Of a stretch of DNA of 34,452 bases, positions 1-2,166 are shown in pieces. Position numbers and translations under genes: made by a program. The notes below the pieces were generated by a model. The model did not search any database. It worked only from the letters and a program-made list of their open reading frames with translations, and was not told the DNA's origin. Source of the DNA: Bacillota bacterium (GTDB lineage Bacteria > Bacillota > Sulfobacillia > Sulfobacillales > Sulfobacillaceae); the NCBI GenBank assembly GCA_021841025.1, contig JAKBWA010000073.1, positions 1 through 34,452 of the forward strand, written 5' to 3'. Within the stretch, counting starts at the first letter, position 1, and each line of letters begins with the position of its first letter.

Positions 1-105
1 GTGAATGGTGCGGCGAACATCCTACGCAAAAGTAACCACAGACTCGACTTTGAGCGAGTGGCTAGGGGGCTTTTGGCAAACCCCTTGCGAGTAAAGCTCA
101 TCTGA
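1..105 (+). CDS. tnpB: TnpB RNA-guided nuclease, C-terminal 34 codons (5' part outside window)
   Basis: Frame 1 is open from the first base to TGA at 103-105. It begins VNGAANILRKS, which matches the segment right after the last RuvC aspartate in TnpB proteins (D-x-N-x-A-x-N-I). The Asp itself would be the codon just before the window. TnpB is the guide-RNA-directed DNA endonuclease of IS200/IS605 elements and the ancestor of Cas12. The tail (FERVARGLLANPL) is followed at once by the element's right-end hairpin, which confirms gene and orientation. Whether the full gene is intact cannot be judged here. Confidence 0.82.
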   Translation: MNGAANILRKSNHRLDFERVARGLLANPLRVKLI

Positions 106-149
106 GTTCCTCGCAAGAATCCCCCGGTTTGAGCCGGGGGGAGTGTCAA
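60..149 (+). ncRNA. 3' part of the TnpB guide RNA (omega/reRNA) scaffold
   Basis: In characterised TnpB systems the guide RNA comes from the end of tnpB plus the right end of the element, and its guide is copied from the flanking DNA just beyond that end. Two stems are visible: CTTGCGAG (84-91) with CTCGCAAG (110-117), an 8-bp match around an 18-nt loop, and the 7-bp CCCCCGG/CCGGGGG hairpin at 121-140. By analogy the present guide would start near base 150, inside the permease 3' end. The 5' limit of the RNA is not visible and the start given is nominal. Confidence 0.6.
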
Positions 150-1567
150 GATTCTGCCTCAGAACTTGACGAGATTTTCTCGGCGCTCTCAAAGACGTGA
201 AGCGGGCCATCTTGGCTGCGAAAGGAAAATACGAGAGCGAGTACGAGAATGCCAATGGTTATTCCATCAATTTGGAATCCCATGACTTTAGGGGCCAGGA
301 CCCAAAACAGAACAAGAAGAGATAACAGCAATAACGACGTGAAATACGAAAGAACACGGAGAAGCCCGTGTCCATGGTCGTTCGCGTGGGGCCAATGACG
401 ATGATGGAGTTTGGATAGAAACCATGAGGCGCTTAAGCTGTCCAAGAAGAATTCCATCGTGAGAAAAAACCCGGCAGAAGATAAGACGAGCTGGAAAAGT
501 TGCTTGAGTGAAGGCAACCACAATTGCAAAGAGACAATGCTTAAAGTAAGCACCAGTGGCAAAATGATGGACCAATAAGGAACTTTTTGGCCATTCATAC
601 GTATGAAGGGGCGCGGCAAGAGCTGATCACGGCCGAGGGCAAATAGCACGCGGCTTAAGATATAGGTGGTGAGCCACAAAGAGCCGGCAGTAGACGCTAA
701 AATCGGCACCAAGATCAGCCAGTGGGCATCGGGAAATATACGAAAGGCCCAGGCACTAAGCGGATCGGCATTATAACCAATTTTTCCCGAAGGGGTTTCT
801 TGTAGGATCAAGGGAAACAGCACGGCATAAATGGCTAGAGCGAATAAGGCGCCAAAAATTCCCGAAAGCCCTGGATCTTTTTGTGGAGATACCGCTTCTT
901 CGGCAGCGTAACTATCGATTTCCCACCCATCCATAATGGTCGAGGCTATCACGGCAGCAAGCAGAATGTTGGTCCAGGGGGTGCTGGTATGGAATGATGC
1001 CTGGGGAGATAGGGTATGCAAGGCGGGGAAACGAATGAGGGCTGCTAGAATCAAGATGGCCAAAGATATGATTTCCACGCTTAAAAACAACTGGGTAAAC
1101 CGGGCTGTGGGTCTTGACCCCATAAGCAGCGGGATCATCGCGACGAAAACCCACATGGCACTAATCAGGAAGAGTTGCCAAGATGTGGGATGGCTATGCG
1201 GAAAGACAAGAACCCAACTATACTGGGCTTGTGGCATCACTATGGGGGGTAATGACACAAAATAGGCGACAATCACTACCATTGCCTGAAACCGGCCATA
1301 GGTGGCTCCCATCACTTGTCTTCCCCAGTGGTAGGACGCTCCTGCGTTGGGGAAGTGCTGATTAAGCAAGCGAAAAATAAAGGCACTGGCCAGAAGGGGC
1401 ACGGCAATGATGACAACGGCTAGCAAAACCTTGGAACCTGCCAGTTGAAGCATCACACCGCCCGCGGCAGCAATGCTAAAAAGAGGCCCGACACTGGAAA
1501 CAGAAAGTGAGGTTAGATCACTCAGTCGCAAAACTTGCTGAAATTTGGGAAATGGGCCAGGTTTCAA
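146..1567 (-). CDS. APC-family amino acid/polyamine permease
   Basis: A 473-residue, very hydrophobic protein with about 12 predicted membrane helices. The N-terminal helix-1 region (SSVGPLFSIAAAGG) and the PNAGASYHWGRQ segment near residue 75 match the first conserved blocks of the APC superfamily, which imports amino acids or amines with protons at the cytoplasmic membrane. Substrate cannot be assigned. Translation starts at a TTG; the minus strand has GGAGG about 10 nt upstream. The TGA stop (146-148) falls within the last bases of the neighbouring IS200/IS605 right end, so the final residues (EAES) may not be the ancestral C-terminus. Length is normal for the family, so function need not be lost. 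Confidence 0.8.
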   Translation of the reverse strand: MKPGPFPKFQQVLRLSDLTSLSVSSVGPLFSIAAAGGVMLQLAGSKVLLAVVIIAVPLLASAFIFRLLNQHFPNAGASYHWGRQVMGATYGRFQAMVVIVAYFVSLPPIVMPQAQYSWVLVFPHSHPTSWQLFLISAMWVFVAMIPLLMGSRPTARFTQLFLSVEIISLAILILAALIRFPALHTLSPQASFHTSTPWTNILLAAVIASTIMDGWEIDSYAAEEAVSPQKDPGLSGIFGALFALAIYAVLFPLILQETPSGKIGYNADPLSAWAFRIFPDAHWLILVPILASTAGSLWLTTYILSRVLFALGRDQLLPRPFIRMNGQKVPYWSIILPLVLTLSIVSLQLWLPSLKQLFQLVLSSAGFFLTMEFFLDSLSASWFLSKLHHRHWPHANDHGHGLLRVLSYFTSLLLLSLLVLFWVLAPKVMGFQIDGITIGILVLALVFSFRSQDGPLHVFESAEKISSSSEAES

Positions 1568-1716
1568 TGTTTACAATCCTCCAATTTATCATGTTAGTGA
1601 TCATAGCAGATCGTGTTTGATCCCGGGCTATAGTATTTTGAAAGTATAAGACGGATTGTTGCTCAAGGGTGGGGAAGTTTCATAAAATGAGATCGAATTC
1701 GAAGAGAGGCGAAGGT

Positions 1717-2166
1717 ATGCAAATTCGACCATATCGTCCACAGCAAGATTACCGTGCGATATTAAATGCACAATGCGACTTATATAAAATCAATTTTCCG
1801 CGATTTGTCTGTACGCCAGCGTTTTTGGCCGACCAGTCGCAACGTTTGCGTGCTGCGGCGCGTAGGCCATTTGAAAATGGAATTTTTGTGCTAGCGGATG
1901 AAACTGAGCTGGCGGGCTTCATCTGGGTAGCTTTGCGCATGGATTTGCAGGGAACTTACGGATCCATTGATCAGGTCTATTTGCGGGAGCCATATCGCAG
2001 GAAGGGCTATGGAGAACTATTAATGGAGGCAGCCCACGACTTTATTCGCAAGCAGGGAATTGCCGTTGCCCGGCTTTATGTAACTGCGGACAATGCCGAC
2101 GCCGTACATTTGTATGAACGGCAAGGCTATCACACGACGCGGTTGGAAATGGAGCGTATGCTGTAA
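1717..2166 (+). CDS. GNAT-family N-acetyltransferase
   Basis: A 149-residue protein with the GNAT acetyl-CoA-binding motif: an antiparallel strand ending in VYLREPYRRKGYGELLMEA gives the R/Q-x-x-G-x-G/A signature (RRKGYG), and a later strand/helix carries VHLYERQGY, typical of the C-terminal half. It transfers an acetyl group to an amine; the substrate (antibiotic, ribosomal protein or metabolite) is unknown. I chose ATG 1717 because AGAGG lies 8 nt upstream and the protein then begins MQIRPYRPQQD, a usual GNAT start. An in-frame ATG at 1687 would add 10 residues. It is monocistronic, followed by a terminator, and converges on the HtrA gene. Confidence 0.8.
   Translation: MQIRPYRPQQDYRAILNAQCDLYKINFPRFVCTPAFLADQSQRLRAAARRPFENGIFVLADETELAGFIWVALRMDLQGTYGSIDQVYLREPYRRKGYGELLMEAAHDFIRKQGIAVARLYVTADNADAVHLYERQGYHTTRLEMERML

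What the first reader, a model, noticed from the sequence alone, without database searches (positions are those of the whole stretch)
1..149. TnpB guide-RNA end with a readable current guide next to a transporter gene
The window opens in the last RuvC block of TnpB and carries the right-end hairpin and an upstream 8-bp stem (84-91/110-117). In known systems the guide is the flanking DNA past the right end, so this RNA should target the permease 3' end (from about base 150).
Basis: partly seen in the sequence, partly recalled or inferred. Interest (0 to 1): 0.6.

Follow-up and report, generated by a model that had tools for sequence, protein, structure and literature searches.

The report
Jumping gene's guide-RNA end, intact
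This is the right-hand end of a common bacterial jumping gene (IS200/IS605 type, tnpB-only), whose RNA is predicted to carry a guide matching the DNA next to it so that the site left by the element is cut and refilled; the empty and filled forms of the site could be worked out exactly, but the system itself is a known kind.

Summary
Confirmed, and an ordinary example of a known kind. Window 1-149 is the right end of a tnpB-only IS200/IS605-type (IS1341-like) element in a Sulfobacillus-like Bacillota genome. The window starts at a contig edge, one codon after the catalytic RuvC-III Asp of TnpB. The 8-bp stem (84-91/110-117) and end hairpin (120-142) are real; the structure covaries across 21 right ends of the genus. 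The element ends exactly at base 149 (..GTGTCAA|). The missing left half of this insertion lies on another contig of the same genome (C103): convergent neighbour gene, terminator, TTTTTAT, then the left end. Four relatives carry the same two genes without an element. Target/TAM is TTAT (45 of 51 left ends). The predicted guide, GATTCTGCCTCAGAAC..., is the last codons of an amino-acid permease and matches only this locus. TTAT precedes it only in the empty site, so the expected target is the donor joint, not the filled copy. The insertion replaced TCA-TAA by TCT-TGA and left the permease unchanged (473 aa). No RNA or nuclease activity was tested. The TnpB has a relocated RuvC-II Glu and no zinc-finger cysteines.

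The parts
1..105 (+). 3' end of tnpB: last 34 codons (from just after the RuvC-III Asp) and stop TGA 103-105
   Evidence: in-frame translation; same C-terminus in full TnpBs L042, L051, L039; C88 of the same genome reads NAD|VNGA
36..61 (+). upstream hairpin of the predicted reRNA (36-39/58-61, 43-44/53-54), inside tnpB coding sequence
   Evidence: compensatory changes at 4 of 6 pairs; perfect long hairpin in L042/L045
67..83 (+). GGG 67-69 / CCC 81-83, possible short helix of the reRNA
   Evidence: 96.8% paired but hardly varies, so weak evidence
84..117 (+). 8-bp stem 84-91/110-117 with inner hairpin 95-99/104-108
   Evidence: sequence; fold; 95.8% of cells paired; inner hairpin has compensatory changes in relatives
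120..142 (+). right-end subterminal hairpin, 7 nt before the end of the element
   Evidence: fold; compensatory changes at 3 pairs
143..149 (+). terminal GTGTCAA; element ends after TCAA at 149; on the - strand its TGA (148-146) is the stop codon of the permease gene
   Evidence: flanks diverge after it in 30 copies; translation of filled and inferred empty site
150..169 (+). predicted guide/target GATTCTGCCTCAGAACTTGA (first ~16-20 nt past the right end)
   Evidence: position by analogy to ISDra2 reRNA (PMC8612924); only exact match in the own genome is here, next best 3 mismatches and without TTAT before it
146..1567 (-). amino-acid permease (APC family), 473 aa, stop supplied by the element
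   Evidence: ORF; Pfam PF13520/PF00324; orthologues in G001, G003, G005, G006

Best explanation
Window 1-149 is the right end of a tnpB-only IS200/IS605-type transposon (about 1.43 kb when complete) that inserted 3' of TTAT at the stop codon of an amino-acid permease gene. Its last ~125 nt, overlapping the end of tnpB, are the scaffold of a reRNA (omega RNA), and the RNA runs on past base 149 so that GATTCTGCCTCAGAAC... becomes the guide. When a Y1 transposase acting in trans excises the element, the resealed site reads TTTTTAT|GATTCTGCC..., which matches TAM plus guide. TnpB is expected to cut it so that repair from a sister copy restores the element. Shown here: element ends, target site, the reconstructed empty site, empty relatives, conserved RNA fold, unchanged permease protein, uniqueness of the guide match. 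Inferred from ISDra2 and other TnpBs: transcription, processing, cleavage, trans-mobilisation.
For: TnpB tail in frame. Full-length TnpB of the same subfamily hits NF040570 guided_TnpB (193.9 bits, cut-off 100) and PF07282/PF01385. 20 right-end matches in the own genome; C74 and C8 are 98-99% identical to the window over their 127-128 nt, at different sites. reRNA covariation 0/500 shuffles. TTAT before 45 of 51 left ends. Left half of this insertion at the edge of C103 with the convergent neighbour gene. G003, G001, G005 and G006 have the two genes with no element. Autonomous relative with the same left-end core, same TTAT, divergent tnpA and TCAA end in G001.
Against: No RNA, no protein and no cleavage data. 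The window copy's own tnpB beyond its last 34 codons is not assembled. No transposase of the matching clade was found in this genome's assembly; the Y1 proteins there are at most about 42% identical to it. The canonical RuvC-II Glu is missing and only a relocated candidate Glu is seen. C113 and C103 are joined by synteny and by the reconstituted stop codon, not by reads.
Confidence: 0.88

Rival explanations
1. The copy is a dead or tnpB-truncated remnant: the right end is kept but TnpB is not made from it, and the conserved hairpins persist only because a Y1 transposase needs them as single-stranded DNA for mobility.
For: Many copies in the genus are frameshifted or internally deleted (L031, L035, L045, L048; C54 and C81 in the own genome). 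Short versions without a tnpB frame, about 349 bp, are common in the own genome. End hairpins are known Y1 recognition sites (PMC10278001).
Against: The window copy is 98-99% identical to C74 and C8 at the right end, so the group moved recently. The last 34 codons are intact. The upstream hairpins at 36-61 and 84-117 covary too, and lie beyond the single subterminal hairpin.
Confidence: 0.2
2. The RNA-like hairpins act mainly as a transcription terminator or antisense element for the permease gene rather than as a guide RNA.
For: The insertion separates the permease gene from its native terminator, which now lies beyond the left end.
Against: No terminator-like site by consensus at the right end. 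The same fold occurs at many unrelated sites with other neighbours.
Confidence: 0.05
3. The guide is used against other sites (regulation or defence) rather than against the donor joint.
For: TnpBs have been recruited for other functions (established knowledge); not tested here beyond the genus.
Against: No second match with fewer than 3 mismatches in eight genomes of the genus, and none of the 3-mismatch sites has TTAT. Nearly every copy carries a different flank as guide.
Confidence: 0.03

Closest known systems
ISDra2 TnpB-reRNA (Deinococcus radiodurans; Karvelis et al. 2021, PMC8612924)
   Same: Guide is ~16 nt of flank past the right end; scaffold overlaps the 3' end of tnpB; TAM equals the insertion target; donor joint is the natural target.
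   Different: TAM here TTAT, not TTGAT; no tnpA in the element; relocated RuvC-II Glu and no zinc-finger Cys.
'Derived' TnpBs with RuvC-III NADXN (Nety et al. 2023, PMC10278001)
   Same: NADVN motif; omega RNA with two 5' stem-loops and a 3' stem-loop within 10 nt of the guide.
   Different: Membership judged by motif and RNA layout only; no tree was built.
D-phi-G / Ealt TnpBs (Yoon et al. 2023, PMC10711439)
   Same: RuvC-I DLG; Glu at the place seven residues before the first zinc-finger Cys position (EESYTSKAS), invariant in 7 aligned relatives.
   Different: Zinc-finger cysteines are absent; their search pattern requires them.
IS1341-type tnpB-only elements
   Same: One gene, tnpB, between IS605-like ends.
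   Different: None seen that would separate them.
IS608 (Helicobacter pylori), from general knowledge
   Same: 4-nt target ending the left flank, TCAA as right-end cleavage site.
   Different: TTAC target and tnpA present in IS608.

Membership tests
IS200/IS605-superfamily transposon (IS1341-like) | defined ends with subterminal hairpins, no terminal inverted repeats | tested here: met
   LE TTAT|CAA(A/G)TGCGCCGTAAAACCC-hairpin and RE hairpin-GTGTCAA|
IS200/IS605-superfamily transposon (IS1341-like) | inserts 3' of a fixed short target without duplicating it | tested here: met
   TTAT in 45/51 LEs; inferred empty site TTTTTAT|GATTC restores the permease stop codon; empty relatives
IS200/IS605-superfamily transposon (IS1341-like) | tnpB present, tnpA absent | tested here: met
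   complete copies in G003: 1434, 1441, 1429 bp, tnpB only; not readable for the window copy itself
RNA-guided TnpB nuclease | TnpB family protein with RuvC motifs | tested here: met
   NF040570, PF07282; D200 and D385 present
RNA-guided TnpB nuclease | catalytic Glu of RuvC-II | tested here: inconclusive
   canonical position is Gly (VVGYN); conserved Glu338 at the 'alternative' place (PMC10711439)
RNA-guided TnpB nuclease | zinc-finger cysteines (present in many, not all; not a defining feature) | tested here: not met
   YTSKASFLDGD, no CxxC
reRNA / omega RNA | conserved scaffold with hairpin within 10 nt of the right end | tested here: met
   hairpin ends at 142, 7 nt before 149; covariation
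reRNA / omega RNA | transcribed, with ~16 nt of flank at its 3' end | not testable with these tools
   needs small-RNA sequencing
Rfam RNA family | match to a curated family | tested here: not met
   no match up to E=1 in 1-2000

The most novel reading that the evidence does not exclude
The same genome carries about 349-bp versions of the element without tnpB that keep both ends and the full reRNA fold, with compensatory changes. They might supply guides in trans to TnpB made by the full copies, so that one TnpB guards a whole set of non-autonomous elements.
Probability: 0.25. Interest if true: 0.45.

Novelty: new member of a known kind. Interest (0 to 1): 0.25.

Why it matters
It gives a fully resolved TnpB element site in an acidophilic Bacillota genus: both junctions, the target, the guide and empty relatives are known from sequence. 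That makes the 'cut the donor joint and refill' model directly testable with an uncommon TnpB (relocated catalytic Glu, no zinc-finger cysteines). The system is otherwise well described.

Tried and rejected
Rfam search of 1-2000: nothing. PF07282 search of the own genome found only other TnpB subfamilies; the matching ones are cut at contig edges. Terminator preference of the insertions: 2 of 45 left-end flanks against 0.8% of TTAT sites, p = 0.06, not claimed (one search had a faulty left-end pattern, but its right-end part stands). Stop-codon replacement as a general habit: only 2 of 30 right-end flanks have an open frame of 100 codons or more ending at the element's TGA, and one of them is the window, so not general. 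Structure prediction with a two-row alignment failed (mean pLDDT 37.5), so the place of Glu338 near the active site is not shown. No solved structure found by sequence. The pattern search for left ends with 3 mismatches is at chance level; only sites inspected with flank were used. The PNAS 2023 census of TnpBs was not in the library.

Full report
What was checked. The window is contig C113 of a 118-contig genome. TnpB relatives place it near Sulfobacillus and other Bacillota metagenome genomes. The contig starts inside a repeat: C74, C8, C99, C88 and C64 of the same genome break at about the same place. Bases 1-102 are the last 34 codons of tnpB, with stop TGA at 103-105. The codon just before the window is the RuvC-III Asp: C88 reads 11 bases further and gives NAD|VNGA, as do the full TnpBs.

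The RNA. Twenty-one distinct right ends of the genus were aligned. The structure with an upstream hairpin (36-61), the 84-117 stem with an inner hairpin, and the end hairpin (120-142) has 94.5% of cells paired and 26 cells changed on both sides, against 7.9 in shuffles, 0/500. Sliding the partners drops pairing to 39-56%. The structure was drawn from these sequences, so the slide control leans towards it, and the shuffles do not correct for relatedness. The plain compensations (GC to CG at columns 112/119 and 78/87, AU to GC at 14/38) are the stronger argument. The layout, two 5' stem-loops and a 3' stem-loop within 10 nt of the guide, is that reported for 'Derived' TnpBs with RuvC-III NADXN (PMC10278001).

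The ends and the site. Right ends diverge after GTGTCAA in 30 flanks, so the element ends at 149. Left ends begin CAA(A/G)TGCGCCGTAAAACCC or a close variant, after TTAT in 45 of 51 sites. In four relatives the permease gene is followed, convergently, by a gene that in the own genome is a cytosine/purine-type permease (PF02133), with nothing like the element between. The neighbour gene of the own genome lies at the edge of contig C103. Read towards the edge it gives CCCGGTCCCTTGCAAGGGACCGGGTTTTTAT|CAAGTGCGCCGTAAAACCCCCGC, which is the left end. Joining the flanks gives TTTTTAT|GATTCTGCC, in which the permease ends GAA TCA TAA, like GGT TCA TAA in G003. In the window it ends GAA TCT TGA, the T and TGA coming from the element, and the protein stays 473 aa long with the same end. 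The insertion is therefore silent for the protein but puts the element between the gene and its terminator.

The guide. GATTCTGCCTCAGAACTTGA has one exact match in the own genome, this site; 3-mismatch sites in three genomes have no TTAT before them. In the filled site the guide sequence is preceded by GTGTCAA, so a TTAT-dependent nuclease should spare it. The empty site carries TTAT directly before it. G003 has TTTTTTAT but a different sequence behind it, so this guide would not serve there.

The protein and the movers. Complete copies in G003 are 1.43-1.44 kb and encode tnpB alone. The protein is a guided_TnpB with relatives in Peribacillus, Paraclostridium, Finegoldia and cyanobacteria. The RuvC-II Glu is not at its usual place; a Glu at position 338 is invariant in seven aligned relatives and sits at the alternative place described for Fanzors and some TnpBs. 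Nety et al. report an active TnpB with a rearranged RuvC-II, so loss of the usual Glu does not mean loss of activity. The zinc-finger cysteines are gone. A Y1 transposase whose own element has the same left-end core, TTAT target and TCAA right end is in G001; transposases of its clade with the same left end are in G003, G004 and G002. None of that clade was found in the own assembly.

Verdict. It is a new member of a known kind. What is inferred and not shown: that the RNA is made, that TnpB of this clade cuts, and that the transposase works in trans.

Noticed in passing
L010-L018, L020 (G000 C27, C38, C100, C92, C52, C37, C91, C9, C3, C110): Short (about 349 bp in C37) versions of the element without a tnpB reading frame; most keep both ends and the full reRNA fold with compensatory base changes, some are truncated.
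   Followed up: partly
L173 (G000 C27 near 149.2 kb): A 45-bp element made of the left end fused to the right end through the hairpin: TTTAT|CAAGTGCGCCGTAAAACCCCCGCCTTTAGCCGTGGGGAGTGTCAA|.
   Followed up: no
L088 (G001 C1, about 150.9-154.3 kb): Complete IS605-type element with divergent tnpA and a zinc-finger tnpB, sharing the left-end core and the TTAT target with the tnpB-only family; candidate helper for its mobility.
   Followed up: partly
L172 (G000 C96, contig end): Another left end of the same group inserted in the T-tract of a terminator-like hairpin; two such cases in all, not significant.
   Followed up: yes
L062 (G000 C7, 1-791): tnpB copy whose first ~24 codons differ from the family although the frame is open; its left end is not recognisable.
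   Followed up: no
window 1669-2166: Acetyltransferase-like gene next to the permease, kept in order with the HtrA-like protease gene in all four relatives.
   Followed up: no
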